This document shows positions 31,741-49,936 of a stretch of DNA of 64,000 nt, piece by piece. A program made the position numbers and the translations under genes. This stretch comes from Acidimicrobiales bacterium (GTDB lineage Bacteria; Actinomycetota; Acidimicrobiia; Acidimicrobiales; Palsa-688), in assembly GCA_036378675.1 (NCBI GenBank), contig DASUWA010000016.1:1-64000 (forward strand), given 5' to 3'. The stretch's first letter is position 1. Every line of letters begins with the position of its first letter. Under the pieces are notes generated by a model that was not told the DNA's origin, made no database searches, and saw nothing but the letters and a program-made list of their open reading frames with translations.

Positions 31741-32451
31741 GTGGACCAAAGCAGACGCGATTTCCTGAAGAAGAGCGCCATCGTCGGTGGGGCGGTATGG
31801 GTGGCACCCTCGATCGTCACAGTCGGCTCCGCCGCCGGCGCCTCGCCGGTCTGCAACTGTCCGAGCTGTCATGCCAATGCCACGGCGGTTGGGCTACTTC
31901 CTGACTCCGCCATCCCCCTCGGCCAGACGACGAGTACTAGCGGCTCAGCGTGCGCCAACAACTGCCTTGTCCCTGCGAGCCCTCTAATCGCGGTGGCGTG
32001 CAGTAAAGCGGACAGCGGTTCGTGCAGCTCAAGCGCATTTGTGGCCGGTGTCGGACCGTTGCCGCTGGGAACTCTAGGAACCCTCTCGGCTGACGTGATC
32101 TCTACCTGCGTGTGCTGCGGGCAGGGCGGGACCACCTTCGTGAATGTCTCGTTCACCCCGGTTACAGGTGGTACTCCCCTGACCTTGACTCCGAACTGCA
32201 ATGGCGCGGTCGGTGTTGTGCCTGGCCTGCTCACGATCCACACCAACGAACAGACGTGCACTAACGGCGTTCTCACGGTCACCGGCCTGAGAGTGAATCT
32301 CGGTGGGTCCGACATTGTTGTTTTGGCGCAATCCACCGCTGGCGCGACAGGCTGCGCCTGCCACGCATGCACGACCGGATCGGTGTCTACCCCGCCGTGC
32401 ACGACCCCGGGGCCCGCACAAACGAGCTGCACTCCCGCAACCTCCTGCTGA
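31741..32451 (+). CDS. Tat-exported cysteine-rich protein
   Basis: The product is 236 residues from GTG 31741, with an AAGAAGGGG ribosome site. The leader is SRRDFLKKSAIVGG (RR at residues 5-6), then AVWVAPSIV and a cut region near residue 33. The exported part has 18 cysteines, often in close pairs (CNCPSC, CVCCG, CACHAC), and is otherwise rich in T, G, S and P. No known fold is recognised; the cysteines could bind metal or form disulfides, as Tat exports folded proteins. It is followed by a 13-bp hairpin and then by an HprK-like kinase gene, the same order as at 46857-48343. I suspect it is a substrate of that kinase or of the PqqD proteins (inference). Confidence 0.75.
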   Translation: MDQSRRDFLKKSAIVGGAVWVAPSIVTVGSAAGASPVCNCPSCHANATAVGLLPDSAIPLGQTTSTSGSACANNCLVPASPLIAVACSKADSGSCSSSAFVAGVGPLPLGTLGTLSADVISTCVCCGQGGTTFVNVSFTPVTGGTPLTLTPNCNGAVGVVPGLLTIHTNEQTCTNGVLTVTGLRVNLGGSDIVVLAQSTAGATGCACHACTTGSVSTPPCTTPGPAQTSCTPATSC

Positions 32452-32487
32452 GAAGCACGGCCAGGTAGAGGCTCAGGGCGAGGTGTG

Positions 32488-32518
32488 AGACGTCTCTGCC
32501 CAAGTGGCAGGGACGTCT
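32488..32518 (+). terminator. Strong hairpin between Tat-protein and kinase genes
   Basis: AGACGTC-T-CTGCC at 32488-32500 pairs with GGCAG-G-GACGTCT at 32506-32518 through a 5-base CAAGT loop, 13 pairs in RNA with one U-G. No T-run follows. It probably acts as a partial terminator or RNA stabiliser so that the first gene is expressed more than the second. Confidence 0.55.
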
Positions 32519-32580
32519 TGCTCGCGACTGGCTTGCCGCGTAGCGTTTTCGTTGCAACGGGGAAGGCCACCGGAGGGGCA

Positions 32581-33483
32581 TTGGAAAGTACGGCAAGTGC
32601 GGAGGCGGCACGGCAGCTGAACGCGCGGGTCTATGTCACGAGCCGCTTCGTCGCACTCGGATACGACTTCGAGATCGAGACCGGTGACCCCGTCCTCGGC
32701 CGGTATCTGGACTCGGTGCTGTCGCCGTTTGCCCGGACGGGTCGTGGAGCGCACCGATATGCGGTCGTCCGTAGGTCAGACCCCGATGAGCACTTCGCGC
32801 TGTACTTCGAAGGTGAGCGGCAACGGCGGTCAAACGACGGGGGTACCGTCCTCGCCTATCTGTTCTGGCACATCAACTCGCAGGTCATCAGTCAATCGAA
32901 CCACTCCCTGCTGCTCCATGCCGCCGGCGCCGAGCTCGGAGGCCGGGCCGTCGTGCTGCCGGGACCCTCCGGGGCGGGTAAGAGCACGCTTGTCGCGGGA
33001 CTGATCCGGGCAGGGTTCCGTTATTTGACCGACGAGGCCGTTGCTCTCGATTCTGCTACTGGCGACGTCGTTCCCTTTCCCAAACCATTGAAACTCGACA
33101 CTGGATCGCAGTCTTTGTTGCCTGAGTTGCGTCCGGAGCTCGACCCGAAGATCGATCGATACGAGACGAACGATTGGATCGTGGACGTCCGGTCGATCGG
33201 ACCGGACCGACTTGCCCCGCCGGCCCCTCCAGCATTCGTTGTCGGCCCGGCCTACCGTCGAGGGAGCGAAACACGGCTCATTCCTCTTCGGCCGGCAGAA
33301 ACCGCGATGCTAATGATCCAGAACGCATTGAACCTGCCCACGCACGGAAGGGCCGGTTTGGACCTCGTCGCGGCGACCGCCCGACGGGTGCCCGGCTTCC
33401 GACTTGAGGTCGGCGACCTCGACGCAGCCTGCTCCCTGATCACCGAACTCATGATCGGCGTTTCCCCCGATTTGATGCCCTGA
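32581..33483 (+). CDS. HprK-like serine kinase
   Basis: The product is 300 residues from TTG 32581, which has GGAGG four bases before it. It resembles the C-terminal catalytic domain of HPr kinase: SLLLHAAGAELGG with the conserved His, Walker A GPSGAGKST at residues 128-136, and the acidic pair in YLTDEAVALD near residues 150-157, followed by PKPLKLD. HPr itself and the N-terminal domain of true HprK are absent, so this is the HprK-related type found with PqqD and nucleotidyltransferase genes. The ATP-dependent step would phosphorylate a peptide or protein, or use ATP for another modification. It follows the cysteine-rich Tat gene. Confidence 0.8.
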   Translation: MESTASAEAARQLNARVYVTSRFVALGYDFEIETGDPVLGRYLDSVLSPFARTGRGAHRYAVVRRSDPDEHFALYFEGERQRRSNDGGTVLAYLFWHINSQVISQSNHSLLLHAAGAELGGRAVVLPGPSGAGKSTLVAGLIRAGFRYLTDEAVALDSATGDVVPFPKPLKLDTGSQSLLPELRPELDPKIDRYETNDWIVDVRSIGPDRLAPPAPPAFVVGPAYRRGSETRLIPLRPAETAMLMIQNALNLPTHGRAGLDLVAATARRVPGFRLEVGDLDAACSLITELMIGVSPDLMP

Positions 33484-34387: not shown

Positions 34388-35098
34388 GTGGAGGCCGTCG
34401 ATGTCACGGTCTTGCTGGGTGCGGGGATGCCAGCAGAGCTCGAGGTACTCGAATATGCGCTCGGGCGTAGGCGCAGCGTGAGCACCTTGGGTTGGGACCC
34501 GACCGTCAGCGGGACGGTCGACAAGGTTGCAACTCGAAAGCCGGACGTCGCCCTCGTATGTGCCGATTTTCCCGACGGGGACGGCATAACTGCGTGTTCG
34601 GAGATCAAACGTCATTTCCCTCCGACCCGGGTAATAGTCATCGGGCCCTCACGGGATGACAGCGTTCTGATTTCAGCAGTGAAGGCCGGCGCCGACGGAT
34701 TCGTCACCACCAACGACTCGATCGATGATCTGGTCGACGCAGTGCATGAGGTCAGCCGGGGCGCCTCGCACATACCGCCGATGATGCTCGGCGGGCTTTT
34801 GCGAGGTCTGATCGAGTTCAGGCGGGAGGACGACGGGGCCTTTGAGCGGTTCGCCAGCCTCGGCAAACGCGAGCGGGAAGTCCTGGTAGGTATCTGTGCC
34901 GGGCTCGGCGACCAGGCGATAGCTGCGAGGCTCCACCTCTCACCCCACACCACCCGCACTCACGCGCAGAACATCTTGGGCAAGCTAGGCGTACATTCCC
35001 GCGTGGAAGCGACGCGGATGGTGTTCGAGCACGACTTGTTCGCTCGCTTCGGCATTGATGTCGATGGACTGGCGGAAGAAGGAGGGGGTGCGAAGTGA
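34388..35098 (+). CDS. LuxR-type response regulator, atypical receiver
   Basis: The 236-residue product has a receiver-like domain (about 5-125) and a LuxR helix-turn-helix (about 155-220; LGKREREVLVGICAGLGD then AARLHLSPHTTRTHAQNI). In the receiver the place of the phospho-acceptor Asp is taken by Cys in ALVCADFPDGDG and the usual late Lys is a Thr (GFVTTNDS), so phosphorylation is doubtful. The start is GTG 34388. The TGA overlaps the GTG of the PqqD-family gene, so regulator and PqqD protein are coupled. It probably controls this locus. Confidence 0.8.
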   Translation: MEAVDVTVLLGAGMPAELEVLEYALGRRRSVSTLGWDPTVSGTVDKVATRKPDVALVCADFPDGDGITACSEIKRHFPPTRVIVIGPSRDDSVLISAVKAGADGFVTTNDSIDDLVDAVHEVSRGASHIPPMMLGGLLRGLIEFRREDDGAFERFASLGKREREVLVGICAGLGDQAIAARLHLSPHTTRTHAQNILGKLGVHSRVEATRMVFEHDLFARFGIDVDGLAEEGGGAK

Positions 35099-35436
35099 GC
35101 AACCAGAGTTTCAAGCCCGGGCTACGTCCTTTCCAACGACCCGGAATCCGCATCGAACATCGCGGCGCGCAGGCCCTGATCTCCGATGCCGAACGGACCA
35201 AAGTCCTCTCCCTCAACGAGTCGGCGGCAGCAGTGCTGGAGTTGTGCGACGGACGGACGACGATCGACGAGATGGTGATGGCTATTTGCCAGGTGGCTTC
35301 CGTTCGACCCGATCAAGCCCGGGAGGACGTCGAACTGACGATAGCGAAATTGGAGGGGGCAGGTTTCGTGGCTTTTGACCCAGGAGTGGGCCGCAAGCGC
35401 AGCCCGAGACCAAGCGTTAGCGGGAGCGATCTGTGA
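35095..35436 (+). CDS. PqqD-family peptide-binding protein (copy 1)
   Basis: The 113-residue protein has the PqqD winged-helix fold at about residues 16-95: RIEHRGAQALISDAERTK, VLSLNESAAAVLELCDG, a TIDEMV helix and a final LEGAGFVAF strand. PqqD proteins bind leader peptides (the RRE of RiPP systems) and present them to modifying enzymes. No radical-SAM partner is present here; the likely partners are the HprK-like kinases. Its gene overlaps the regulator before it and the Wzz-like gene after it, both by GTGA, so it is translationally coupled to both. Confidence 0.8.
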   Translation: MSNQSFKPGLRPFQRPGIRIEHRGAQALISDAERTKVLSLNESAAAVLELCDGRTTIDEMVMAICQVASVRPDQAREDVELTIAKLEGAGFVAFDPGVGRKRSPRPSVSGSDL

Positions 35437-37386: not shown

Positions 37387-37668
37387 GTGTCACATGAACA
37401 CCGCTGGGTCCGATCGCCCGGGACGCTCTGGCGCTCCTCCAGCGGCACCCTGGTCGTACTGCCTCAGGAAGGAGACGATCCAACCCCATTGGTGGTGTCT
37501 GGATCGGCGGCGCTGGTTTGGGGCCTCCTTGCCACACCCGTCACGCTCGTGGAACTGGCAGACCGACTATCCCAACTGTGCGATGCCAGTGCCGACGTGA
37601 TCGCCAGAGACCTGGCTCCAGTGCTCGACCAATTAAACGCGGCTGCGGCTGTGCAACGGGTGCCATGA
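37387..37668 (+). CDS. PqqD-family peptide-binding protein (copy 2)
   Basis: The 93-residue product reads HRWVRSPGTLWRSSSGTLVVL, then VSGSAALVWGLLATPVTL and a final pair of helices with DVIARDLAPVLDQLNAAAAV, matching a PqqD winged helix. I start it at GTG 37387; TTG 37357 would add ten residues. The open frame continues upstream through the repeat tail of the preceding gene but that part is a frame shadow. The stop overlaps the ATG of the nucleotidyltransferase (ATGA), so the two are coupled. It is the most divergent of the five PqqD domains. Confidence 0.7.
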   Translation: MSHEHRWVRSPGTLWRSSSGTLVVLPQEGDDPTPLVVSGSAALVWGLLATPVTLVELADRLSQLCDASADVIARDLAPVLDQLNAAAAVQRVP

Positions 37669-38819
37669 ATCTCGGCGTCCCTTCCTTTCCCACACTCGGG
37701 ACTCACGTTTCATCGTTATTGCGCTCTGTCGCCGCGCACGGCCTCGTCGGCAAGCACGGCGAGAGCCAGGACGCGTTTGCCCTTGTCTCGGAGCCGTTGA
37801 GCCAGCCCGACTGGCGCAGCCTGCTTTCGACGGCGCGCCACGAACGCCTACTCGGGTTGCTTTCCCGCGCGATGGCCGATGGCGCCCTACCTTGCAGTCT
37901 CGAGCAAGCCGAGGAGCTCCATCAGGCGCACTTGGCCGAACTGTGCCGGGACCTAACGTGCGAAAGGCAACTCATCGAGGTCGTACGGGCACTACGGCAG
38001 GCCGATCTGGATCACCGTGTTCTCAAGGGCTCAGCCGTGGCGCATCTTGACTATCCAGAGCCTGCGCTCCGCTCCTTCGCCGATGTCGACCTCCTCGTAC
38101 GCGCCGACCAGTGGGACGATGCGGTCGCGGTCCTGGCCGAAGCCGGGTGGCAGCGTCAGTTCGGTGAACCCCGGCCGGGCTTCGATCGCCGCTTCGTGAA
38201 GGGGGTAGTGCTTACTCGGACCACAGGAGAGACCCCGATGGAATTGGACCTTCATCGGACCCTAGCGCTCGGTCCGTTCGGGCTCACCGTCCGACTCGAG
38301 GACCTTTGGGACGGATATGACGTGCTTCGGATCGGTGGAGAAGAGCTGCACTGTCTCCAAGCTCAGGAGCGTTTCCTACACGCGTGCTTCCACGCGGTGC
38401 TCGGAGATTTTCCTTCCCGGCTTGTCCCGCTACGTGACATCGCCGAGATGATTCTGAATAAGGATCTTGATCTAGACCTCGTCATCGATCTTTCGCGATC
38501 GTGGCACGCCGAAGCCGTGTTGCTTCACGCCGTACAAGTCTCTTGCGCAACCCTCCAATTGGATTCATCCGAGGAACCTTGGAACCGCATCAACTCGTTA
38601 AGGCCGCCACGTCGCGAGCTGACAGCGTTGAGGCCGTATCTGACGCCCAAGCGCTCCTACGTAGGGCTGTGCTTGGCCGCAACCCGAGCGATCCGTAAGC
38701 CGTCGGACAAGGCTCGCTATCTCGCCGCAATGGCGTTCCCTAGGCGGCAGTTTGTTGGGGCCCGCTACCGCAGCCGCGTCGACCGGTGGCGAGCAGCGGC
38801 ACAGGTGCTTCGCTCGTGA
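37665..38819 (+). CDS. Nucleotidyltransferase-fold protein (PF14907 type)
   Basis: The 384-residue protein has the uncharacterised nucleotidyltransferase signature HRVLKGSAVAHLDYPEPALRSFADVDLLVRA near residues 120-150, in which the D-V-D gives the metal-binding acidic pair, followed by a helical domain (ELDLHRTLAL, FLHACFHAVLGDFPSRLVPLRDIAEM). Family members occur with PqqD, HprK-like and asparagine-synthase genes, including lasso-peptide clusters with a phosphorylating kinase. The substrate is not established. Start is ATG 37665, fixed by the ATGA overlap with the PqqD gene; the long in-frame extension to 37518 is spurious. Confidence 0.8.
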   Translation: MNLGVPSFPTLGTHVSSLLRSVAAHGLVGKHGESQDAFALVSEPLSQPDWRSLLSTARHERLLGLLSRAMADGALPCSLEQAEELHQAHLAELCRDLTCERQLIEVVRALRQADLDHRVLKGSAVAHLDYPEPALRSFADVDLLVRADQWDDAVAVLAEAGWQRQFGEPRPGFDRRFVKGVVLTRTTGETPMELDLHRTLALGPFGLTVRLEDLWDGYDVLRIGGEELHCLQAQERFLHACFHAVLGDFPSRLVPLRDIAEMILNKDLDLDLVIDLSRSWHAEAVLLHAVQVSCATLQLDSSEEPWNRINSLRPPRRELTALRPYLTPKRSYVGLCLAATRAIRKPSDKARYLAAMAFPRRQFVGARYRSRVDRWRAAAQVLRS

Positions 38820-38856
38820 CGAACCCACGAAGCCGAGCCGGCCGGTACCGCGCAGG

Positions 38857-39198
38857 GTGACGGACGACGCACAAGTCCCGCAGCACGTCGGACCCGACTT
38901 CGTCGCGACCCGGCGGCAGGACATGATTACGGTCGAGATCGAAGCGGAGGCGATCGTTTACGACGAGCAGCAAGAGGTCGCGCACCTGCTCAGTCCTACA
39001 GCAGCAATCGTATGGGAGCTGCTCGACGGCCGAAGTCGGCTCGACGAGGTGGCCGTCGACCTCGCACAGGCTTTTGACGTAGCCGCCGAGCTGGTTCTAC
39101 AGGACGTCGTGACGCTCGTCCAGGAATTCTCTCGGCAAGGTTTGCTCGCGAGGAGTTCGACAACTTCGGCGGAGACCAAGTGCACATCGCCGCCCTGA
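38857..39198 (+). CDS. PqqD-family peptide-binding protein (copy 3)
   Basis: The 113-residue product has DMITVEIEAEAIVYDEQQ, VAHLLSPTAAIVWELLDG, LDEVAVDLAQAFDV and QEFSRQGLLAR, a standard PqqD winged helix at about residues 20-100. It begins at GTG 38857, 37 bases after the nucleotidyltransferase stop; an open frame back to 38752 overlaps that gene and is not conserved. The end overlaps the next gene by 19 bases. It is closest in sequence to the PqqD domain of the fusion protein at 40225-42027 (shared AAIVWE-x-x-DG). Confidence 0.78.
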   Translation: MTDDAQVPQHVGPDFVATRRQDMITVEIEAEAIVYDEQQEVAHLLSPTAAIVWELLDGRSRLDEVAVDLAQAFDVAAELVLQDVVTLVQEFSRQGLLARSSTTSAETKCTSPP

Positions 39199-40224: not shown

Positions 40225-42027
40225 TTATTCCGACTCGTTCCTTATTGACGGCAACTGTTTCTCGATGCTTTGCATGAGCTCGCGCTCCGACGCTGAATTC
40301 AGGGGAATGACCCTGACCTGCTGCACGATTCGCTCGAGGTGCTCGATCACCTTGCCCAGCTGGTCGGGTGAACCTTCTACGGCGGGCAGAAGGGCCGCAA
40401 TGGCGCCGGCCCGGCTGGACCGCTCGTTCTCGGCGGACTGATCGCATTCGAAGCCCCACGCCCCCAGCCGGTAGCGGCCCGGCTCCATCGGAAGGAGTTC
40501 GCTCCGCGACGACGGAACTTCGCCGAGCTCTTCAAGCACATCGTGTGCCACCTCGATCGCCGGTTCGGGTATCACCAACTCCCCCGTCGCGGGATCGACC
40601 AGGGCCCCGGGCGCGTCGCTGAGGCGCACGCCTAGCCGAGCCAGCCGGGGCTGCAAGTACTCCATCCCGCGGATTGCAGCCGGTGGCAACAGAAACGCAC
40701 GATCGCCGGCCAACGCAGCCACGGCGACAGTGCGGACCAGACCGTCGGTGTCGGGTCTGTCGAGCAGGCCAGACAGCCTTGCCTGAAGCGCTCGCACGAC
40801 CCGGCGAGAGGACCGGCTTCGTAGCACGGTGGCATCCGCGGCGAGGAGCAGGCTCAGGGCTTTGGCGTCTCCTGAGTCGGCGCCGCCGAGAACGACCGAG
40901 AAGTTGGCCGCCGCCGGCGGGCCATCCTGAACCAGGTAGGCGCCGAACACTCTGGCGAGAAGTTCCTCGGTCCGGATCGAATCAGCCCTGACACCGACCC
41001 GGTAGTCGCCGATGTCGAAGCCCAATGTGGACGCCCACTGTCGGGGAGCCTTCCCTCCTGTGTGGGGGGACGGCCCGCACATTCCCCCGGCCGCGGGCAA
41101 TACCGGTCGCTGAGCATGAACGTGCTCCACGCCGCCCTGGTCTGCGTCCGGCTGCGACGTGACCTCGGTCGGCTCGGGCTGGAGCCCGGCGGCCTCGCGG
41201 GCCAGATTCGGCACTTGGTCCGCGCCCAAAGCGGCGGGATGCTCTATTACCCCGTCGACGCCCAGAAGGTAAGCGACAGGAGTCCCGAGAGAACCGAACG
41301 GATTGGCCGAGCCGGGATGATCCCCGTCTTCGGCGTGCTTCCGGTAGAAAGCTGCGTCGCTCAGCCCGGCTGGATCAAGCACCCGCCGGTTGTCCTCGTC
41401 CGACCCGACTGTCAGGAGCACCAGATCGATGCCGCGCTCGACCAACCCGGGTCTGCACTGCTCCAGATCCCCGACGATCTTCGAGCAGTAACCGCACGAC
41501 GGGCTCCAGTTGATCAAGAGGGTGCCCTTGCTTTCGGGCCGCGGAACAGTCACCAAATCCCCGCTGGACGTCGTCACCTGAAGCACTCCGATCGACTCTC
41601 CAACCTCCCGGACGCCTGGCGCCGGCGGGGGCCCCGGAACGAAGAGGGCGACGCCGGCGAGTAGTCCGAGCTCGCCTAGCTGGCGGGTCATCCCCAGGAT
41701 GTCAGCAATGACGACCTCCACCGGAGCTTCGAAGACTTCGGCCAGCTCCTGAGCCAGTTCACCCAAGGTGACCGTGCCGTCGAAGCACTCCCATACGATC
41801 GCCGCGATCGAGTTGAGCACATGGATTCGGCCCGTCCGATCGTCGACGACCAGCACCTCATCGTCGAAGCGGTATGAAACGGAAGACTCTCGGGGATTGG
41901 GAGCGAAACTGGCGTCGATGTCCTCCGGCTTTTTCGCGATGCTTACCGACACCGGTGGCATCGGGCTATGCGACCCGTTAGTACCCGCCATCGACAATGA
42001 CTCCGATTCCACCCCGTGCTCAGCCAC
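40225..42027 (-). CDS. PqqD-thioredoxin-HprK-like fusion protein with a dead kinase site
   Basis: The product is 600 residues from GTG 42027 (AAGGGG upstream). Residues about 48-126 are a PqqD winged helix (VLVVDDRTGRIHVLNSIAAIVWECFDG). Residues about 145-275 are a thioredoxin fold with active site CGYC (Cys178, Cys181) in LLINWSPSCGYCSK and a cis-Pro in GTPVAYLL. Residues about 330-510 align with the HprK-like kinases, but the P-loop is replaced (LLPPAAIRGMEYL, about 446-458), the His before it is lost and DE becomes DA (RLSDAPGALVD). It is last in the bacillosamine operon and overlaps the sugar-transferase gene by 8 bases. It has no signal peptide. It may join leader binding, redox chemistry and kinase scaffolding. 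Confidence 0.8.
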   Translation of the reverse strand: MAEHGVESESLSMAGTNGSHSPMPPVSVSIAKKPEDIDASFAPNPRESSVSYRFDDEVLVVDDRTGRIHVLNSIAAIVWECFDGTVTLGELAQELAEVFEAPVEVVIADILGMTRQLGELGLLAGVALFVPGPPPAPGVREVGESIGVLQVTTSSGDLVTVPRPESKGTLLINWSPSCGYCSKIVGDLEQCRPGLVERGIDLVLLTVGSDEDNRRVLDPAGLSDAAFYRKHAEDGDHPGSANPFGSLGTPVAYLLGVDGVIEHPAALGADQVPNLAREAAGLQPEPTEVTSQPDADQGGVEHVHAQRPVLPAAGGMCGPSPHTGGKAPRQWASTLGFDIGDYRVGVRADSIRTEELLARVFGAYLVQDGPPAAANFSVVLGGADSGDAKALSLLLAADATVLRSRSSRRVVRALQARLSGLLDRPDTDGLVRTVAVAALAGDRAFLLPPAAIRGMEYLQPRLARLGVRLSDAPGALVDPATGELVIPEPAIEVAHDVLEELGEVPSSRSELLPMEPGRYRLGAWGFECDQSAENERSSRAGAIAALLPAVEGSPDQLGKVIEHLERIVQQVRVIPLNSASERELMQSIEKQLPSIRNESE

Positions 42028-42670
42028 CCTGCGCCCCTTCTTCCACGAGCTGCCCGACTCCTGACGTGAGCGTAACATCCGCTTTGTCCGGTTCGCCACG
42101 GGAATCGCCCTTGAAAACGGGCATGGTCGCGTGGCCAGAATGAGAGATACCACGTGCCCGTGTGACGGTCAGCGGCGTTTCCACCAGCAAGCGCAGATCT
42201 AAACGCCACGAGCGGTGTTCGACGTACCAACTGTCGAGCCGGAACTTCTCATCCCATGTGAGAGCGTTGCGGCCACGAACCTGGACCAGACCGGTCAGTC
42301 CCGGCTTGACCTCCAGCCTGCGCGCCTGCTCGGGTGAGTAGCGCGAGTTGTAATCCGTAGGAAGCGGCCGGGGTCCCACCAGCCGCATGTCGCCCCGGAC
42401 GACGTTCCACAAGCTCGGAAGCTCGTCGAGGCTGGCCCGGCGCAGGGCGCGCCCGAGGCCCGTCATCCTCAGCTCATCACCCTCGCCGAATGCTCCACCC
42501 GGACGCATCGTCCTGAACTTGTACAGGACAAAGGGAAGGCCTCCCTTCCCAGCGCGCTGCTGCCGGAAGAGGACCGGGGATCCGTCGAGAACCCGGATCA
42601 GCACAGCCACCGCCGCCATCACTGGGGTCAGCGCCGCGCATAGGACGCCGGCAACGATCCGGTCGATCAT
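42020..42670 (-). CDS. pglC: Undecaprenyl-phosphate sugar-1-phosphate transferase, PglC-like
   Basis: The 216-residue protein is a short monotopic phosphoglycosyltransferase of the PglC type. It has an N-terminal re-entrant hydrophobic helix (IVAGVLCAALTPVMAAVAVLI), SPVLFRQQRAG, YKFRTMRPG, the catalytic DELPSLWNVVRGDMRLVGPRPL, and PGLTGLVQVRGRN. It lacks the four extra membrane helices of WbaP/WcaJ. It would move a diamino-sugar phosphate from UDP onto undecaprenyl phosphate at the inner face of the membrane, starting glycan assembly. Its ATG overlaps the aminotransferase stop by ATGA. Confidence 0.88.
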   Translation of the reverse strand: MIDRIVAGVLCAALTPVMAAVAVLIRVLDGSPVLFRQQRAGKGGLPFVLYKFRTMRPGGAFGEGDELRMTGLGRALRRASLDELPSLWNVVRGDMRLVGPRPLPTDYNSRYSPEQARRLEVKPGLTGLVQVRGRNALTWDEKFRLDSWYVEHRSWRLDLRLLVETPLTVTRARGISHSGHATMPVFKGDSRGEPDKADVTLTSGVGQLVEEGAQGG

Positions 42671-43779
42671 CTAGCTACCTGACACACCGCTCCGACCGAC
42701 TCGGCAAGAGCGCCGGCGATCTCCTCAACCTCACCGAACGTCAACCGCGAGTGAATCGGCAAGGACAGGATGCTCCCGGCCACATCGTCGGTGACGGGAA
42801 GCTTCGCGGCCGAGTCGGCGAAGATCGGTTGGCGGTGCACAGGTGGGAAGTACACGCGGGTCTCGATCCCTTTCCACCTCATCTCCTCCACAACCGCGTC
42901 ACGGGCTGCTGCTTGTGACTCCAACTTCACTGTGTAGAGCATGTGCACGTGGTCCCGGTCCGGTCGCGTCGCCGGCGGCTGTACGCCCGGCAAGTCTTCG
43001 AGCAGCCGGTCCATTTCGGCAGCGAGGGCAAGTTTGCGCGCCAGGATCCCGCTGAGCTTGCCCAGTTGCGCCCTTCCCATCGCCGCCTGCATCTCGGTGA
43101 TGCGCCAGTTGCAACCGATCAACGAGTGCACGTAGGGCTCGGTCTGGCCGTGATTGCGAATCAATCGCAGCCGCTCAGCCAACTCGACATCGTTGGTGAG
43201 GACCATTCCACCCTCGCCGGTGGTGATGTTCTTTGTAGGGGTGAAGCTGAACATACCGGCCAGCCCCCAAGTGCCCACGTACCGGCCGCGGTAGCGCGCA
43301 CCGTGCGCCTCGGCGGCGTCCTCGAGAAGCAACACGCCTGCATCTGCGGCCACCTCGGCGAGTTCGGCTAGATCCGCCGGCTGCCCGCCGTAGTGCACCG
43401 CCAGGATCGCCTTCACCCTTGGCCCCAGACGACGGACCACATCGGCTGGGTCGATGTTGAACGTCTCGGGGTCGATGTCGGCGAAAACGGGCGTGGCGCC
43501 GGAGTAGACGACCGAGGTGGCGGAAGACACGAACGTCAGAGACGGGACGATGACTTCGTCACCTGGACCGATTCCGAGCGCCGCATACATGGCTATGAGC
43601 GCTACCGTCCCGTTGGCGAACGCAACGCCGTGCTGCGCGCCGTGGTAGGCGGCGAACTCACTCTCGAACGCCTCGGTCTCGGGTCCGGCAGTGAGGACCG
43701 GGCCGCGCAGGACACGTGAGACCGCGGCGATCTCCTCGTCGCCGACATCGGGCCGAGCCAGTCCGATGCGCCGGGTCAT
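42667..43779 (-). CDS. pglE: DegT/DnrJ/EryC1 aminotransferase, PglE-like
   Basis: The 370-residue PLP enzyme would aminate the 4-keto sugar made by the dehydratase, using glutamate. Visible blocks are IGLARPDVGDEEIAAV, FANGTVALIAMYAALGIG, DIDPETFNIDP, VHYGGQPAD, EDAAEAHGARYRGR and FSFTPTKNITTGEGGMVLTN with the PLP lysine at about residue 183. RNHGQ and NWRITEMQAAMGRAQL complete the family pattern. ATG 43779 overlaps the stop of the acetyltransferase gene (ATGA); a second ATG nine bases upstream is possible. The long open frame upstream to 44346 is a shadow of the acetyltransferase. Confidence 0.87.
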   Translation of the reverse strand: MTRRIGLARPDVGDEEIAAVSRVLRGPVLTAGPETEAFESEFAAYHGAQHGVAFANGTVALIAMYAALGIGPGDEVIVPSLTFVSSATSVVYSGATPVFADIDPETFNIDPADVVRRLGPRVKAILAVHYGGQPADLAELAEVAADAGVLLLEDAAEAHGARYRGRYVGTWGLAGMFSFTPTKNITTGEGGMVLTNDVELAERLRLIRNHGQTEPYVHSLIGCNWRITEMQAAMGRAQLGKLSGILARKLALAAEMDRLLEDLPGVQPPATRPDRDHVHMLYTVKLESQAAARDAVVEEMRWKGIETRVYFPPVHRQPIFADSAAKLPVTDDVAGSILSLPIHSRLTFGEVEEIAGALAESVGAVCQVAR

Positions 43780-44429
43780 TCCTGCCATCCCGGTTGCCGA
43801 GTCGCGATCGCCCGGGCCGGGCAACCGACGACCGTCGTGTTCGGCTCGACGTCGTCGATGACCACCGCGCCTGCACCGACCACAGACCACTCGCCGACCT
43901 TCCTGCCCTGAACGACCGAGGCGCCGATGCCGATCTCGGCGCCTTCCCCTACATGGACGTTCCCCGCCAGGTGGGCTCCCGGAGCGATGGTGGCGAAGTC
44001 TGAGAGGCGGCAGTTGTGGCTCACCGTGGCAGCGGTGTTGACGATGGCGAACCGTCCGACGGTCACATCGGCGGTGAGCACCGCTTGCGCGGCAACGATC
44101 GCTCCTTCGCCCAGCGAACTTCCCAACCCGACATGGGCGGTGGGATGAACCAGGGAGGGCGCCGAACAGCTTCCTGCGTGGTGGATGGCCTTCGAGGCAC
44201 GCAGACGTGCTGATGGCGCACCAAAAGCGATCGCGACCGCGACTGGGCGATGCGCCAGCCATTCGACGCGCCCCAGAACGGGCAACCCGAGCACGTCGGC
44301 TCCTAAGAGGTCGGCATCGTCGTCGATGAATCCGGCCAGTTTCCATTGGCCACCACCGAGCGACAGGACCAGGTCCGCCACCTCCTGACCCATGCCACCG
44401 GCGCCATAGATCGCGAGATCAGAGGTCAA
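43776..44429 (-). CDS. pglD: Sugar O/N-acetyltransferase, PglD/NeuD-like
   Basis: The 217-residue protein has an N-terminal Rossmann-like part (LAIYGAGGMGQEVADLVLSL, GFIDDDADLLG) and a C-terminal left-handed beta-helix of hexapeptide repeats (VHPTAHVGLGSSLGEGAIVAAQAVLTADVTVG, broken as a motif), including the catalytic His in TVSHNCRLSDF. It would acetylate the 4-amino group of the UDP sugar with acetyl-CoA to give UDP-N,N'-diacetylbacillosamine. It starts at TTG 44429, overlapping the dehydratase stop by 11 bases. The acetyltransferase lies before the aminotransferase in the operon. Confidence 0.86.
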   Translation of the reverse strand: MTSDLAIYGAGGMGQEVADLVLSLGGGQWKLAGFIDDDADLLGADVLGLPVLGRVEWLAHRPVAVAIAFGAPSARLRASKAIHHAGSCSAPSLVHPTAHVGLGSSLGEGAIVAAQAVLTADVTVGRFAIVNTAATVSHNCRLSDFATIAPGAHLAGNVHVGEGAEIGIGASVVQGRKVGEWSVVGAGAVVIDDVEPNTTVVGCPARAIATRQPGWQE

Positions 44430-46362
44430 CTGCGTCCTTCAGCCGTGGCTCGGCCAGCTCCAGGACATCCAACTGCAAGTCGGAGGAGCCCAGGCACGGC
44501 GCGCGGCACAGCTCGTCCAGCCGACACCTGATCAGAACGTCTGAGCCAGACGGCTTGAGGACCGTCAACGCGGCCGGGGAGAGAGGGTCCGCCTGTACGT
44601 GAGATATCAGCGGGTGCACCCTCCGCTCGATCGCCTCTCCATCCCCGAGCAGCTCCTCTTCAAGCTTTTCCCCCTGCCTCAGCCCGGTGTAGACGATGTC
44701 TATCGGTTGGCAGGCCGCAGCAGCCATCGCCGACGCCACCTTGGCGATCTTCACCGGCTCCCCCATGTCCAACACGAGGACCTCCCCACCTTTGCCGAGA
44801 GCTCCCGCCTGTATGACGAGCTCGACCGCTTCCTCCACGGTCATGAAGTACCGGGTGACATCCGGGTGGGTGACGGTCAGCGGGCCTCCGGCGTCGATTT
44901 GAGCCTGGAACGTCGGCAGCACCGAACCCCTGCTGCCTAAAACGTTGCCGAAGCGGACGCTCAGGTAAGTCCCACCTGCGCCGAGGGCGGCGTGGGCGGT
45001 GAGCCGCTCGCCGATGCGTTTGCTGTACCCGAGCACACAGACGGGATTGACTGCCTTGTCGGTCGAGATGTTGACGAAGCGTTCGACACCGTAGGCCTTG
45101 GCGACATCGAGCACGTTCTGGGTGCCCTGCACGTTGGTCTTGACTGCCTCGGCAGGCCAGGTTTCAAGCAACGGAAGGTGTTTGAGAGCCGCAGTATGGA
45201 AGACCACTTGCGGTCTGTGCTCTGCGAAGACCTCGTCGAGTGCATCCGGATCCCTGATGTCGCAGAGCGCCAGGTGCCTTCCGTCGAGGAGAGCTCTACC
45301 TTCGAGAGACAGCTGCACCTGGTGAAGAGCCGACTCGTCGCGGTCGAGCATGATCAGCTCGGCCGGGCCGTGAGCGTAAATTTGCCGGCACAACTCCGAA
45401 CCGATCGAGCCGCCGGCTCCGGTCACCAGTACCCGCCTTCCATTCAGGTAACCGGCGATGGCCGCCACGTCGGTCCGGATAACCCTGCGCCCTAGCAGGT
45501 CGGCGGGGGTAACCGGACGGATGTCCTGAGCTTTCAATGTGGAGGTGAGCATCTCCGACACGGTCGGCAGCACCCTCACCTTTAGTCCCTCCGCGGTTGC
45601 TATCTCCGTTATGTCGCGGACCAACTCGGACGGAGCACTCGGGATCGCGATGATCACCGAGTCGGCGAGAAGGCGAGCCGCGACGGCAGGCAGATCGTCG
45701 CGTGTTCCGCTGACCTTCAGGAGTCGCAGGCGCAGGTTTCGCTTGACCGGATCGTCGTCGAGGAGCGCAACCGGGAGATACCCGCTCGTCGGATCTCGCA
45801 GCAACACTTCGATGAGTTGGACTCCGGCGTCGCCGGCCCCGAAGATGATCGCTCTCTCCGCGCGATCCACAGGTCGGCGGTTGCGCTCCCAGTTGAGACG
45901 CCATCCCACTCGTAAACTCGCAGCTCCAATAAGAGCGAGAGCGGTGCCGCCGACTACTACAGTAGCGGGCACCACGTGATGCGCTGGAGCGAGGCTCACA
46001 GCGCCGATGGCAAAGCCGACGGCGGTGACAGTCGGAGCCAACCAGAGCAGCTCCTCCAGGCTTCCAACCCTCCAGGTTGCCCGGTAGAGAGGGGTCGTCA
46101 ACCCGAGCAAGGCTTGAAGTCCTACCGCCGCCGCTACGACGATCCCCAGCCGAATCGAAAAAGCGTGCACGACGGCGTTGCTCCCGTGAAACTGGAAGCG
46201 GAGTACGTTGAGGGTCGCGATTGAAGCGGCCCATACCGCCCCGTCGGCAGCCACCATGACGGCTCGACGGTGCCTGCTGATCGCGAAGTAACCGGGCGGG
46301 AGTCCGGAAGGCCCGCCCGCCTCAAACATCTCTTGTCTGTGTTCCGCGCCCCTTACCCTCAT
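44419..46362 (-). CDS. pglF: UDP-GlcNAc 4,6-dehydratase, PglF/CapD-like, membrane-bound
   Basis: The product is 647 residues from ATG 46362, with GGAGGGG upstream. It has about four membrane segments at residues 30-165, a CoA-binding-like domain (IIFGAGDAGVQLIEVLL, near 185) and the SDR dehydratase domain starting VLVTGAGGSIGSELCRQI near residue 310. Further marks are FHTAALKHLPLLE, NISTDKAVNPVCVLGYSKRIGE and VRFGNVLGSRGSVLPTF. It would convert UDP-GlcNAc to the 4-keto-6-deoxy sugar, the first step of bacillosamine synthesis. It is the first gene of a tightly overlapping five-gene operon on the minus strand, facing the Tat gene at 46857. Confidence 0.88.
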   Translation of the reverse strand: MRVRGAEHRQEMFEAGGPSGLPPGYFAISRHRRAVMVAADGAVWAASIATLNVLRFQFHGSNAVVHAFSIRLGIVVAAAVGLQALLGLTTPLYRATWRVGSLEELLWLAPTVTAVGFAIGAVSLAPAHHVVPATVVVGGTALALIGAASLRVGWRLNWERNRRPVDRAERAIIFGAGDAGVQLIEVLLRDPTSGYLPVALLDDDPVKRNLRLRLLKVSGTRDDLPAVAARLLADSVIIAIPSAPSELVRDITEIATAEGLKVRVLPTVSEMLTSTLKAQDIRPVTPADLLGRRVIRTDVAAIAGYLNGRRVLVTGAGGSIGSELCRQIYAHGPAELIMLDRDESALHQVQLSLEGRALLDGRHLALCDIRDPDALDEVFAEHRPQVVFHTAALKHLPLLETWPAEAVKTNVQGTQNVLDVAKAYGVERFVNISTDKAVNPVCVLGYSKRIGERLTAHAALGAGGTYLSVRFGNVLGSRGSVLPTFQAQIDAGGPLTVTHPDVTRYFMTVEEAVELVIQAGALGKGGEVLVLDMGEPVKIAKVASAMAAAACQPIDIVYTGLRQGEKLEEELLGDGEAIERRVHPLISHVQADPLSPAALTVLKPSGSDVLIRCRLDELCRAPCLGSSDLQLDVLELAEPRLKDAVDL

Positions 46363-46856
46363 CCAGCCCCTCCGTGTCGCTCCAGCAAGCCCCACGCTGT
46401 TCGGACCCTCGGCGCAACGAAGTCCCACACGTATACGGAGTAAACGCGCCGACGAACAAATACACCGAAAGTCCCGCGAGGACTTCGCTCCGCGCGCTTA
46501 CCAGCGATGGCCACCGGCCATCGGATTAGCGGCCGCCAATACAGTCCCCAGCACGCTGCCGCAGTTAGCCCTTTAGGCAACCACCCCTTTTCCCCTTTTT
46601 CGAACAGACCCCAACCCTGCTGCAGGGCAAGCTATCACCCGGATTAACTAGTTCGCACGGGTCAAATAACCAAAAGTGCAGCTATTTCAATTCGCGCGCG
46701 TGCCCCGCCACATCCCGTGGCGACTCTGTAGTTGAGCAATCTTCCAATACGAGACTTTCAAGTACGACGTAGGAAAAATACGGCAAATGGGTGATACACC
46801 CACCACGTTCGGATGGCTAGAGTCGCCATACCTCTAGAACTGAACAGGGGGCGGAG
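46363..46856. other. Divergent regulatory region, 494 bases
   Basis: No supported gene lies between the dehydratase operon and the Tat-exported gene. The stretch from about 46560 to 46760 is AT-richer than the flanks and should hold the divergent promoters. A perfect palindrome is at 46788-46802. A small stem CCCTG-CTG-CAGGG is at 46615-46627. Confidence 0.45.
46788..46802. promoter_or_regulatory. Palindrome 55 bases before the Tat gene
   Basis: TGGGTG-ATA-CACCCA is a perfect 6-3-6 inverted repeat, well placed as an operator for the 46857 operon. Its geometry matches the palindrome at 3708-3722 but its sequence does not. Confidence 0.4.
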
Positions 46857-47387
46857 GTGGAAGAGACCGAGGCGGTCATCTCCCGGCGTAGCGCGCTCAA
46901 GAAAATCGGTGTGGGGGCAGCGGTCGTCTGGACGGCGCCGATGGTGATGAGCTTCGAAACTCCCGCATTCGCCGCGTCTGAGGTATGCACGAACTGCGAC
47001 ACGACGTGTCCTCGAAGCGGGAACCAATGCGCACCGGGCCACTTCTGCCTGGTGCATGTGAATCGGGCCGGGTCGCGCTGCGTCTGCGTCTTCGCCAACT
47101 ACTGTGCTGAGACGGCAAAGAATGGAAGCGGCAGCGACATCGTCTGTAGCAGCGATGCAAATTGCCCGCCGGGTTACGTTTGTGCGACGACCTGCTGTGG
47201 TAACGGGGGCCAAAGCATCAATCTGTGCGTGCGACCCTCGGGTCCCGCGAGCGCCCACAGGACCGGGTGGGATGTTGCCGGCCTCTACCACTGCATCCAA
47301 GACTCCGATTGCACCGGGGTTCACAATCCGTTCGGCACCGCGTTCACCCATTGCGCCACGGTTAACGGCCTGAGCGTCTGCCAGTAA
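46857..47387 (+). CDS. Tat-exported cysteine-rich protein
   Basis: The product is 176 residues from GTG 46857. The leader is SRRSALKKIGVGAAVV (RR near residues 10-11) followed by WTAPMVMSFETPAFAAS, with a probable cut after AFA. The mature part has 18 cysteines, the same count as the 31741 protein, in a disulfide-like spacing (CTNCDTTC, CVCVFANYC, CSSDANCPPGYVCATTCC). No metal or enzyme signature is recognised. It is followed after 56 bases by an HprK-like kinase gene, repeating the order at 31741-33483. A surface-exposed, modified small protein is the best inference. Confidence 0.75.
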   Translation: MEETEAVISRRSALKKIGVGAAVVWTAPMVMSFETPAFAASEVCTNCDTTCPRSGNQCAPGHFCLVHVNRAGSRCVCVFANYCAETAKNGSGSDIVCSSDANCPPGYVCATTCCGNGGQSINLCVRPSGPASAHRTGWDVAGLYHCIQDSDCTGVHNPFGTAFTHCATVNGLSVCQ

Positions 47388-47443: not shown

Positions 47444-48343
47444 ATGTCCCGACGGGCCGGCGCGTCAGCAGACTGGCTGGGGGACGGTTACTTTCGCTGC
47501 CTGGGATACGTGTTCAACTTGCGATGGGATAACCCCGAAGCCGGCCGGACTATTCGCCGCATCCTCGGTCAGTTCGAAATCCCCGCCAATCGAGTCGAGA
47601 GGCGCACTCCCCCAACACCAAACGTGCCGCCGGTGTATTCGCTCAGCCAGACCACCGATGTGTGCGAGGTGCGGTATGGCAACGACCTCCTCTTCGGCCC
47701 GGAAACCTTCGACGAGGCGCTTTCCCATCTCTTGTGGCACATCAACGCCGAGGTGGGCAGGTCCACCGGTAGCTACCTCTTGATTCATGCGGGTGCGATT
47801 GCTGCGCCTTCCGGCGACGGGATGATCCTTCCGGGTGATTCGGGTTCAGGGAAGACCACGCTCGTTGCCGGCCTGGCTGAGAAAGGTTTCCAGTACCTCT
47901 CTGATGAGGCGGCCGCAATCGACCCGGTGAGCCGGCAGCTGTACCCGTACGCGAAGCCGCTGACCTTGAAACTCGGATCCCTTTCGCTCTTCCCAGGCCT
48001 GGAAGCTCACAAGACGGACAGCGTTGTGCGCCTTCAGGACCAGTGGTTCGTGCAGCCGGAAGCCTTTGGCGGCAAGACCGTCTCCGGCCCGTGCAGCGTG
48101 CGCTGGGTCGTCAGTGTTCGCTATCAGCCGGACGCGCCGACCCGGCTCGAGCCGATTTCGTCTGGAGAGGCAGTCATGGAACTCGGGCGCCGGATCATGA
48201 ACCTGCCCCAGTACGGCGGTCGGGCGTTCCAGTTGCTGGCGGACGTCGCACGCGGCGCCGCTAGCTATCGCCTAGTAAGTGGCGACCTGCGTGAGGCTGT
48301 GGCGACGCTTGACGGTTTGGCGCGCAGCCAGGAGCGCAGCTGA
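47444..48343 (+). CDS. HprK-like serine kinase
   Basis: The 299-residue protein is a paralogue of the one at 32581. It has YLLIHAGAIAAPSGDGMILPGDSGSGKTTLVAGL with the P-loop GDSGSGKTT at residues 131-139, and the acidic pair in YLSDEAAAIDP near 153-160, then PYAKPLTLKLGS. The preceding LLWHINAEVGRSTGS block is also shared with the 32581 protein (FWHINSQV). All visible ATP-site residues are intact. Its partner is probably the Tat protein encoded just before it or the PqqD-type protein just after it. Confidence 0.8.
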   Translation: MSRRAGASADWLGDGYFRCLGYVFNLRWDNPEAGRTIRRILGQFEIPANRVERRTPPTPNVPPVYSLSQTTDVCEVRYGNDLLFGPETFDEALSHLLWHINAEVGRSTGSYLLIHAGAIAAPSGDGMILPGDSGSGKTTLVAGLAEKGFQYLSDEAAAIDPVSRQLYPYAKPLTLKLGSLSLFPGLEAHKTDSVVRLQDQWFVQPEAFGGKTVSGPCSVRWVVSVRYQPDAPTRLEPISSGEAVMELGRRIMNLPQYGGRAFQLLADVARGAASYRLVSGDLREAVATLDGLARSQERS

Positions 48344-48455: not shown

Positions 48456-49076
48456 TTGCCATACAAGCCGCGGCGGCGCGATGACGTGCTTTTCCGTCAG
48501 GTTGATCGAGGCGTGGTCGCGCTCGACCCGAAGACGCAGCAGGCTCATGCCCTCGAGCCGCCCGCCGCGCAGGTCTGGGCGGCATGCGACGGGGCCGATG
48601 ATGTGGATGCACTGGCGGTCCGATTAGAGGTCCCGGTTGACACCGTGAGGCACATCCTCGGCTGCCTGGCCGACGCGGGATTGATGAACGGTGAGAACGA
48701 CCGGAAGTTCTCGCGGCGTGCCGCCCTCGCCGGGTCCGCCGGCGTTGGCGTCGGGTTGGTGGCCACGATCGTGTTGCCGACCCCGGCGATGGCCGCCAGC
48801 AGGCCGAATCAGACGGGCATCTCACCCGAATCGGCTCAGGGCGAGCAAACGGCGTCAGCGGCGGAGACCCCGACCGGGCCCACCACGGCCGGTCCGACCA
48901 CCACCGAGCCGAACACCACCACTTCGACCCCGAGAAATGGGGCTCATCAAACGGAGCCGGCGCAAGAACTCGCTTTCACCGGTGCAGACTTGACAGACGA
49001 CGTCGCGATCGCTGCAGGCGCGATCGGGGCAGGTGCCGCGATTGTCGCCGCCTCCCGGAAAGCATCAGGCCGGTAA
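48456..49076 (+). CDS. PqqD domain fused to an internal Tat signal and a sortase-like tail
   Basis: The product is 206 residues from TTG 48456 (AGGA five bases upstream). Residues 1-78 are a PqqD winged helix (VLFRQVDRGVVALDPKTQQ, ALEPPAAQVWAACDG, CLADAGLMNG). Residues 85-113 read as a Tat-type signal: KFSRRAALAGSAGVG, a hydrophobic stretch and LPTPAMAAS as cut site. A Thr/Pro/Gly-rich linker follows (about 120-168), then ELAFTG, a hydrophobic segment (about 182-199) and a basic RKASGR end, which resembles an L-A-x-T-G sortase signal. A cytoplasmic peptide-binding domain followed by export and anchoring signals is very unusual. It may be cleaved into two products. Confidence 0.75.
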   Translation: MPYKPRRRDDVLFRQVDRGVVALDPKTQQAHALEPPAAQVWAACDGADDVDALAVRLEVPVDTVRHILGCLADAGLMNGENDRKFSRRAALAGSAGVGVGLVATIVLPTPAMAASRPNQTGISPESAQGEQTASAAETPTGPTTAGPTTTEPNTTTSTPRNGAHQTEPAQELAFTGADLTDDVAIAAGAIGAGAAIVAASRKASGR

Positions 49077-49132: not shown

Positions 49133-49936
49133 GTGTGGCGTTGCTTCGGTCGCGCGGTCGGCCTGCGGGCGCCGGCATCTATGCAAATGGAGTTCGACCG
49201 GCTGATTCCATCCTCGCTGTGGCACCGGGCGATGTCGTCGACCCCGGAGCGGCTTTGGGAAGCAACCCGAACTGACCCGAGCCTCTACATAACCAGCGAG
49301 GGGTCCCCCATCGGTACCTGGGCCGAGCCCGCCGAGGCCGCGCGCGCGGTCCGCAGCGACATGGAGATATGGCTGGGAGCCAACGCTCGGGGAAGGGTCC
49401 TCGTGCATGCTTCCGTCGTGGCTGTCGGCAACGCCGCTCTGGTCCTTCCCGGGCCTTCGATGGCGGGAAAGACGACCCTTGCTGTCGCGCTCGTGCGGCA
49501 GGGCGCGGACTATCTGAGCGACGAGTTCGCCGTTCTGGACACCCAAGGTTTCGTGCATCCGTATCCGCGTCCGGTGTCCATCCGTGACGAGCAAGGAGTT
49601 CATCGACCGGCGGACGTGGACCTCCGCGACCGCGCATATGTCGGCGATGACGGCCTACGAGTAGGGATGATCGCAGAACTGGCCTTCGACCGAACTTGCG
49701 ATGTTCTCAGCATGCGTGAGATCTCGCCTCCGGAGGCCGTGCTTGCATTGCTGCGCAACGCGGTTGGCGCGCGGACCCAGGGCAAGCAAGTACTCGAGTC
49801 AACAGTGGCCGCCGCCCAGGGTGCCCGCTCTTTCTCGGGCATCCGAGGGGAGGCCGCCGTCGTAGCCACGAGCCTTCTCGAGTTGATGAGGCGTGAGAAC
49901 CGATCCCGATTGGGGTCCGTTAGTGCCGGCTCTTAG
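49133..49936 (+). CDS. HprK-like serine kinase
   Basis: The product is 267 residues from GTG 49133. It has RVLVHASVVAVGNAALVLPGPSMAGKTTLAVAL with the P-loop GPSMAGKTT at residues 107-115, and the acidic pair in YLSDEFAVLD near 129-136, then PRPVSI. It is shorter at the N-terminus than the other two copies. It closes the Tat-HprK-PqqD-HprK run that starts at 46857. It probably acts with the PqqD-Tat fusion protein encoded 56 bases upstream. Its end overlaps a convergent gene by 17 bases. Confidence 0.78.
   Translation: MWRCFGRAVGLRAPASMQMEFDRLIPSSLWHRAMSSTPERLWEATRTDPSLYITSEGSPIGTWAEPAEAARAVRSDMEIWLGANARGRVLVHASVVAVGNAALVLPGPSMAGKTTLAVALVRQGADYLSDEFAVLDTQGFVHPYPRPVSIRDEQGVHRPADVDLRDRAYVGDDGLRVGMIAELAFDRTCDVLSMREISPPEAVLALLRNAVGARTQGKQVLESTVAAAQGARSFSGIRGEAAVVATSLLELMRRENRSRLGSVSAGS

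What the first reader, a model, noticed from the sequence alone, without database searches (positions are those of the whole stretch)
40225..42027. PqqD-thioredoxin-HprK fusion with a pseudokinase
One frame joins a PqqD winged helix, a CGYC thioredoxin and an HprK-like domain whose P-loop (LPPAAIRGMEYL), upstream His and DE pair are all lost, while the surrounding pattern (GVRLSDAPGALVDPATGEL against FRYLTDEAVALDSATGDVV) still aligns with the active copies. The fusion is direct evidence that these three activities work together. It is the last gene of the bacillosamine operon, tying the system to glycan synthesis.
Basis: partly seen in the sequence, partly recalled or inferred. Interest (0 to 1): 0.82.

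Follow-up and report, generated by a model that had tools for sequence, protein, structure and literature searches.

The report
Dead kinase fused to peptide-binding and thioredoxin domains
A bacterium (apparently an actinobacterium) makes one protein that joins a peptide-grasping domain, a redox domain and a kinase-shaped domain whose active site is gone; it belongs to an undescribed family of dead kinases that travel with the peptide-grasping domain, probably to hold cysteine-rich proteins before they are exported.

Summary
Window 40225-42027 (-) is one intact 600-aa gene: PqqD domain (57-123), CGYC thioredoxin-like domain (about 136-284), and a third domain (about 330-600) homologous end to end to the active HprK-related kinases beside it (profile-profile E 6e-20). 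Walker A, upstream His and DE are absent. It is not a sequencing join: the same order occurs in two other genera, and the three form one clade. The third domain belongs to a P-loop-less family without Pfam or NCBIfam model (27 members in 24 genomes here), monophyletic at 100/100, apparently under purifying selection, fused to or next to PqqD in 26 of 27 cases: an old dead paralogue, not local decay. The bacillosamine-type operon is real here but not shared by relatives. More telling, these systems repeatedly sit beside Tat-exported cysteine-rich proteins with a shared leader (three in this genome, two directly upstream of active kinases). I propose a non-catalytic substrate-holding subunit: PqqD binds the precursor leader, the dead kinase docks precursor or partner, the thioredoxin domain handles cysteines before Tat export. 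Substrate and mechanism are inferred. New variant of the PqqD/HprK-related kind.

The parts
40225..42027 (-). Three-domain gene, 600 aa: PqqD - thioredoxin-like - P-loop-less HprK-related domain
41659..41859 (-). PqqD (RRE-type winged helix) domain, residues 57-123
   Evidence: Pfam PF05402 E 3.2e-12
41176..41622 (-). Thioredoxin-like domain, MauD/AhpC-TSA type; WSPSCGYC, cis-Pro in GTP
   Evidence: NCBIfam MauD E 7e-5; invariant CxxC and TP in 8 relatives, AhpC-TSA in 7 of 8
41485..41496 (-). CGYC redox motif
41077..41088 (-). GGMC in the linker between thioredoxin and pseudokinase; GGxC invariant in all three known triple fusions
40228..41043 (-). Pseudokinase domain (HprK-related, PEPCK-like fold)
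   Evidence: hhalign E 5.9e-20; AF2 and PEPCK match
40654..40689 (-). LPPAAIRGMEYL, the remnant at the Walker-A position
   Evidence: ungapped alignment to LPGPSGAGKSTL
42020..42670 (-). Sugar transferase (PglC-like), overlaps the fusion gene by 8 b
   Evidence: PF02397 E 9e-54
42667..43803 (-). DegT/PglE-like aminotransferase
   Evidence: PF01041 E 3e-121
43776..44429 (-). PglD-like acetyltransferase
   Evidence: PF17836 and Hexapep
44419..46428 (-). PglF-like 4,6-dehydratase
   Evidence: PF02719 E 7e-101
31741..32451 (+). Tat-signal Cys-rich secreted protein (18 Cys), candidate substrate
32485..33483 (+). Active-type HprK-related kinase (GPSGAGKS)
   Evidence: TIGR04352 E 1e-35, below the curated cut-off
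35095..35436 (+). PqqD protein
   Evidence: PF05402 E 3e-14
37518..38819 (+). NTP_transf_5 nucleotidyltransferase-like protein
   Evidence: PF14907 E 4e-37
38752..39198 (+). PqqD protein
   Evidence: PF05402 E 4e-12
46857..47387 (+). Tat-signal Cys-rich secreted protein (18 Cys), candidate substrate
47444..48343 (+). Active-type HprK-related kinase (GDSGSGKT)
   Evidence: TIGR04352 E 4e-34
48456..49076 (+). PqqD-like domain + Tat signal + LAFTG-type C-terminus in one ORF
   Evidence: PqqD PF05402 E 1e-4, just below cut-off; Tat motif
49133..49936 (+). Active-type HprK-related kinase (GPSMAGKT)
   Evidence: TIGR04352 E 2e-16

Best explanation
The gene encodes a cytoplasmic, non-catalytic substrate-holding subunit of a PqqD/HprK-related protein-modification system. 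Shown: the third domain descends from HprK-related kinases, has lost all of their conserved active-site residues, and is evolutionarily coupled to PqqD. Inferred from family knowledge: the PqqD domain binds the leader of a precursor. Inferred from gene neighbourhood: the precursors are the small Tat-exported, cysteine-rich proteins encoded beside the active kinases. Inferred: the dead kinase domain no longer transfers phosphate but keeps the family's docking surface, holding the precursor or the partner enzymes (active kinase, NTP_transf_5 protein), while the CGYC domain keeps or sorts the precursor's cysteines before the folded product leaves by Tat. The active copies would phosphorylate the precursor, and the nucleotidyltransferase-like protein may then add a sugar, as PsmK and PsmN do in pseudomycoidin.
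For: Homology and loss: hhalign E 5.9e-20 end to end; 27 of 27 active copies have Walker A and 0 of 27 pseudokinases do; the active family has six polar columns conserved at 85% or more (H95, K116, T118, Y130, D133, E134), the pseudokinase family has two, neither of them among those six. Old and selected: one clade 100/100, also with the active-site columns removed; dN/dS about 0.35 in one pair. Coupling to PqqD: 26 of 27 fused or within 192 bp on the same strand; PqqD proteins directly upstream of a pseudokinase end in a PPxP-like tail in 12 of 19 cases against 2 of 30 others (motif noticed first, counted after). Thioredoxin: three triple fusions in one clade, and an unfused contiguous set in L077. 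Substrate: a Tat leader with invariant RR, W and P; only 3 in the whole genome, two of them 34 and 57 bp upstream of active HprK copies; in 24 other genomes 17 of 30 inspected leader loci have a system gene within 1.5 kb; in L088 and L089 a protein with 16 Cys lies directly behind the pseudokinase. Precedents: PsmK/PsmN (PMC9266682); [quoted passage not shown]).
Against: No experiment links the pseudokinase or PqqD to the Tat proteins; the evidence is gene neighbourhood, and the leader model was trained mostly on cluster-adjacent leaders. One of the two other triple-fusion genomes has no such leader at all (G217) and the other only weak ones (G370); the leader protein read in full there has only 3 Cys, so the cysteine role of the thioredoxin domain rests mainly on this genome and G173. 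The fold model used active homologues in its alignment; the independent single-sequence run failed.
Confidence: 0.55

Rival explanations
1. The pseudokinase is mainly an allosteric or hetero-oligomeric activator of the active HprK-related kinases (known HprK enzymes are hexamers, from memory), bringing precursor to them through its PqqD domain.
For: In the order sampled, 17 of 18 genomes with a strong pseudokinase hit also have a TIGR04352 hit, against 112 of 397 overall, hypergeometric p 2e-9. Active and dead copies are close neighbours in L022, L024, L025, L027, L077 and L086. Ocin-ThiF-like proteins are a design precedent.
Against: Four genomes of family f107 carry the pseudokinase with PqqD, three of them with a Cys-rich Tat protein on the same contig, and show no active HprK copy with the A4 profile; they are only 61-89% complete, but absence by chance in all four is unlikely.
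Confidence: 0.25
2. The third domain is still an enzyme, with a new chemistry in the PEPCK-like fold and without a P-loop.
For: Intact, conserved, selected domain; pseudoenzyme-looking folds have turned out active in other families (established knowledge).
Against: Only two polar columns, D150 and R190, are conserved at 85% or more across 19 members, which is few for an active site.
Confidence: 0.1
3. The protein belongs to glycan synthesis: it regulates or scaffolds the bacillosamine-type pathway whose operon it closes.
For: Translationally coupled to a complete PglF-PglD-PglE-PglC-like set; polysaccharide genes also lie near the system in L023 and an aminotransferase near the fusion in L078.
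Against: No other family member seen is the tail of such an operon; 26 of 27 are tied to PqqD instead.
Confidence: 0.09
4. Artefact or decaying gene: a frameshift joined neighbouring genes, or the kinase is a pseudogene.
For: None found beyond the loss of catalytic residues.
Against: Same architecture in two other genera, continuous codon signal, monophyletic P-loop-less family, dN/dS below 1.
Confidence: 0.01

Closest known systems
HprK-related kinase A system (TIGR04352 kinase, TIGR04353 PqqD-family chaperone, PF14907 nucleotidyltransferase-like protein)
   Same: The three window kinases match TIGR04352, the PqqD proteins match PF05402, and an NTP_transf_5 gene is present; the same trio recurs in proteobacterial, planctomycete and Paenibacillus/Cohnella loci.
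   Different: All window and order matches are below the curated cut-off of TIGR04352; no P-loop-less copy was seen in the 67 loci mainly from other phyla; the Tat Cys-rich proteins and the thioredoxin fusion were not reported for that system in any source I could read.
Lasso peptide tailoring by HprK-like kinase and nucleotidyltransferase (paeninodin PadeK, pseudomycoidin PsmK/PsmN) with a PqqD-like B1 protein
   Same: The same three kinds of protein; the kinase phosphorylates, PsmN adds hexose (PMC9266682).
   Different: No lasso peptide precursor, B2 protease or cyclase was noticed near the fusion; the candidate substrates are 176-236 aa Tat proteins.
[quoted passage not shown]
   Same: Works alike, by analogy: a PqqD-like RRE fused to an interaction domain that presents substrate to the modifying enzymes (PMC10634744).
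   Different: A different fold (ThiF-like, not HprK/PEPCK), different enzymes, and no thioredoxin domain.
MauD (methylamine dehydrogenase accessory protein)
   Same: Best thioredoxin-type NCBIfam match of the middle domain; MauD is thought to serve a disulfide-rich exported subunit (from memory).
   Different: 22 bits against a cut-off of 188.6; here the domain has no export signal and is fused to PqqD and a pseudokinase.
HPr kinase/phosphorylase and PEP carboxykinase
   Same: Fold of the third domain; the active relatives match HprK/P chains by sequence.
   Different: P-loop, His and acidic pair absent.

Membership tests
HprK-related kinase (TIGR04352 / HprK-P, active enzyme) | Homology over the whole kinase domain | tested here: met
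   hhalign prob 99.2, E 5.9e-20, 251 columns
HprK-related kinase (TIGR04352 / HprK-P, active enzyme) | Walker-A P-loop | tested here: not met
   LPPAAIRGMEYL; 0 of 27 family members have it
HprK-related kinase (TIGR04352 / HprK-P, active enzyme) | Conserved His and Asp-Glu pair | tested here: not met
   Columns invariant or nearly so in the active family, not conserved in the pseudokinase family
HprK-related kinase (TIGR04352 / HprK-P, active enzyme) | Match to the curated model | tested here: not met
   0 of 19 members match TIGR04352
HprK/PEPCK-like fold | Structure | tested here: inconclusive
   AF2 with active-homologue MSA: PEPCK Z 11.0, rmsd 5.4, 249 residues; Foldseek best E 4e-3; single-sequence control failed
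PqqD / RRE | PF05402 match | tested here: met
   47 bits, cut-off 23.4
PqqD / RRE | Binds a leader peptide | not testable with these tools
   needs binding assay
Thioredoxin-like (MauD/AhpC-TSA type) | CxxC and cis-Pro in a thioredoxin-like profile | tested here: met
   invariant in 8 relatives; AhpC-TSA in 7 of 8; MauD E 7e-5
MauD equivalog | Curated cut-off 188.6 bits | tested here: not met
   22.4 bits
Lasso peptide system | Precursor, B2 protease, C cyclase | not tested
   no dedicated search was run; none noticed near the fusion
RiPP-type modification system | Modified precursor | not testable with these tools
   candidate precursors by neighbourhood only

The most novel reading that the evidence does not exclude
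A so far undescribed class of RRE-dependent modification in Actinobacteria whose substrates are whole Tat-exported cysteine-rich proteins rather than small peptides: PqqD reads a Tat-type leader (in one window ORF, and in L079, a PqqD-like domain is itself the N-terminus of a Tat protein), active HprK-related kinases and an NTP_transf_5 protein phosphorylate and glycosylate the cargo with sugar from the adjoining operon, and a PqqD-thioredoxin-dead-kinase protein holds it reduced and presents it.
Probability: 0.35. Interest if true: 0.85.

Novelty: new variant of a known kind. Interest (0 to 1): 0.62.

Why it matters
HprK-related kinases with PqqD proteins are spread over many phyla, yet outside lasso peptides I found no reported substrate. 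This locus gives three handles: a conserved dead-kinase subunit, a fused thioredoxin domain that points to cysteines, and small Tat proteins encoded directly in front of the kinases. Together they turn 'what does this kinase modify?' into a mass-spectrometry experiment on two named proteins. The P-loop-less family is also a clean natural case of a pseudoenzyme from the HprK/PEPCK fold, and has no model in Pfam or NCBIfam.

Tried and rejected
Single-sequence AlphaFold: pLDDT 42.5, unusable. PDB sequence search with the pseudokinase profile: nothing significant. Pfam and NCBIfam with 19 pseudokinases: nothing significant. The idea that thioredoxin-bearing systems always have especially Cys-rich Tat proteins was not borne out in G217 and G370. 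Papers on HprK-related kinase with PqqD, or exosortase with HprK/PqqD: none in the library. No tRNA or Rfam feature in the window.

Full report
OBSERVATION. The frame at 40225-42027 (-) encodes 600 aa. GTG at 42027 overlaps the stop of the sugar transferase gene by 8 bases and is preceded by a purine-rich stretch. Residues 57-123 are PqqD (PF05402, E 3e-12). Residues from about 136 to 284 are thioredoxin-like: MauD E 7e-5 in NCBIfam, WSPSCGYC, and in eight relatives invariant CxxC and cis-Pro; seven of the eight match AhpC-TSA in Pfam, the window copy itself being below threshold. The rest has no Pfam or NCBIfam match of its own.

THIRD DOMAIN. A family was collected from whole genomes. In 29 regions plus the window, 27 ORFs score better with the P-loop-less profile and 27 better with the active profile; all 27 of the latter have a Walker-A motif and none of the former does. 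Profile-profile comparison of 19 and 20 representatives gives probability 99.2, E 5.9e-20, over 251 columns. The P-loop-less profile, built before this, also picked up the window's own active copy at 32485-33483 (E 3e-4). The active family keeps H95, K116, T118, Y130, D133, E134; the other family keeps only D150 and R190 at 85% or more. An AlphaFold2 model based on an alignment with active homologues has pLDDT 78.4, pTM 0.67 and aligns to PEP carboxykinase with Z 11.0, rmsd 5.4, 249 residues; HprK/P chains appear lower in Foldseek. HprK and PEPCK are known to share this fold (established knowledge). The alignment partly presupposes the fold, and the single-sequence control was useless; the sequence profile result is the independent evidence of homology.

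NOT AN ARTEFACT. Codon-position GC is continuous through both junctions. G370 (L078 2212-3912) and G217 (L079 9881-11542) have the same three domains in the same order, with CGYC and a linker GGxC invariant. In a maximum-likelihood tree all 24 P-loop-less rows form one side of a branch with 100/100 support, the three triple fusions form a clade at 99/93, and the first result survives removal of the His, P-loop and DE columns. dN/dS for one pair of pseudokinases is about 0.35. So this is most simply one ancient loss, kept by selection, and one origin of the triple fusion.

DISTRIBUTION. In 397 genomes of the order, 25 have a profile hit, 18 of them at E below 1e-9; 10 of 396 in the phylum sample, including other classes. 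17 of the 18 also have a TIGR04352 hit against 112 of 397 overall, p 2e-9. Four genomes of a distant family (61-89% complete) have the pseudokinase but no active copy by the A4 profile. In 67 loci fetched by active kinases, mainly from other phyla, PqqD, HprK-related kinase and NTP_transf_5 recur together but no P-loop-less copy was seen. That the window is actinobacterial is inferred from the nearest named relative (Egibacteraceae, 41% for the active kinase).

NEIGHBOURHOOD. 26 of 27 pseudokinases are fused to PqqD or lie within 192 bp of one on the same strand. The unfused PqqD proteins directly upstream end in a PPxP-like tail in 12 of 19 cases against 2 of 30 other unfused PqqD proteins (found by eye first, so the p of 3e-5 is not corrected). 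PqqD is also fused to active HprK in L026, L035, L036, L080 and L028. In L077 the set is unfused and contiguous: NTP_transf_5, active HprK, pseudokinase, PqqD-Trx (start codon overlapping the pseudokinase stop as GTGA), Tat Cys-rich protein. In the window the fusion closes an operon of PglF-, PglD-, DegT/PglE- and PglC-like genes.

CANDIDATE SUBSTRATES. Small proteins with a Tat leader of consensus SRRDxLKKxAVxGAxVWxAP (RR, W, P invariant) sit next to the system. In 29 regions plus the window 21 such ORFs were found, 11 of them beside or overlapping the start of an active HprK ORF on the same strand; most mature parts carry 5 to 19 Cys. In the whole window genome only three such leaders exist, all in this window, two of them 34 and 57 bp upstream of active kinases. 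In 24 other genomes, 17 of 30 inspected leader loci have a system gene within 1.5 kb. The leader model was built mostly from cluster-adjacent leaders, so it is biased towards them, but the search was genome-wide.

MECHANISM. Shown: homology, loss of the active site, coupling to PqqD, recurrent coupling of PqqD, thioredoxin and pseudokinase. Inferred: the PqqD domain binds a leader (all characterised RREs resemble PqqD, PMC7470986); the Tat Cys-rich proteins are the substrate; the pseudokinase domain docks substrate or partner; the thioredoxin domain acts on substrate cysteines before export of the folded protein; active kinases phosphorylate, NTP_transf_5 may glycosylate, as PsmK and PsmN do in pseudomycoidin (PMC9266682). 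Ocin-ThiF-like proteins are the working analogy for an RRE joined to an interaction domain (PMC10634744). The f107 genomes without an active kinase argue against a pure activator role.

VERDICT. The third module is not an activity, the glycan link is local, and the more informative link is to Tat-exported Cys-rich proteins. It is a new variant of a known kind: a dead HprK paralogue wired to PqqD and, in one lineage, to a thioredoxin domain.

Noticed in passing
48456-49076 (+): One ORF joins a PqqD-like domain, a Tat signal (SRRAALAGSAGVGVG...AMA) and a Thr/Pro-rich stretch ending in LAFTG plus a hydrophobic tail, between two active HprK-related genes; a PqqD domain as the front end of an exported protein.
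   Followed up: partly
L079 11651-12787 (-): Apparently the same idea in another genus: PqqD-like N-terminus (by eye), Tat signal, then a glycine-rich secreted part, directly upstream of the triple fusion gene.
   Followed up: partly
31741-32451 and 46857-47387 (+): Two Tat-signal proteins with 18 Cys each directly upstream of active HprK-related genes; their leader type occurs only three times in the whole genome.
   Followed up: yes
L022, L024, L025, L026, L028, L029, L030, L083 (PqqD genes upstream of pseudokinases): C-terminal tail of the type YLxxPPxP on PqqD proteins that precede a pseudokinase; possible docking tail.
   Followed up: partly
41077-41088 (-) and the same place in L078, L079: GGxC motif in the linker between thioredoxin and pseudokinase, invariant in the three triple fusions; a possible redox partner cysteine for CGYC.
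   Followed up: no
L032 9306-11141 (+): Tandem thioredoxin domains of the same subfamily followed by a Tat protein with 22 Cys, without any HprK or PqqD hit in the 20 kb; L033 has two such domains behind what looks like a MauE-like membrane part.
   Followed up: partly
2711-3709 (-): Third Tat protein of the same leader type in the window (5 Cys in the mature part), 28 kb from the kinases.
   Followed up: no
L087, L088, L089, L090: A distant family of the same phylum has PqqD (one or two), pseudokinase and, in three of the four, a Cys-rich Tat protein (16-19 Cys) on the same contig, with no active HprK copy found in the genomes.
   Followed up: partly
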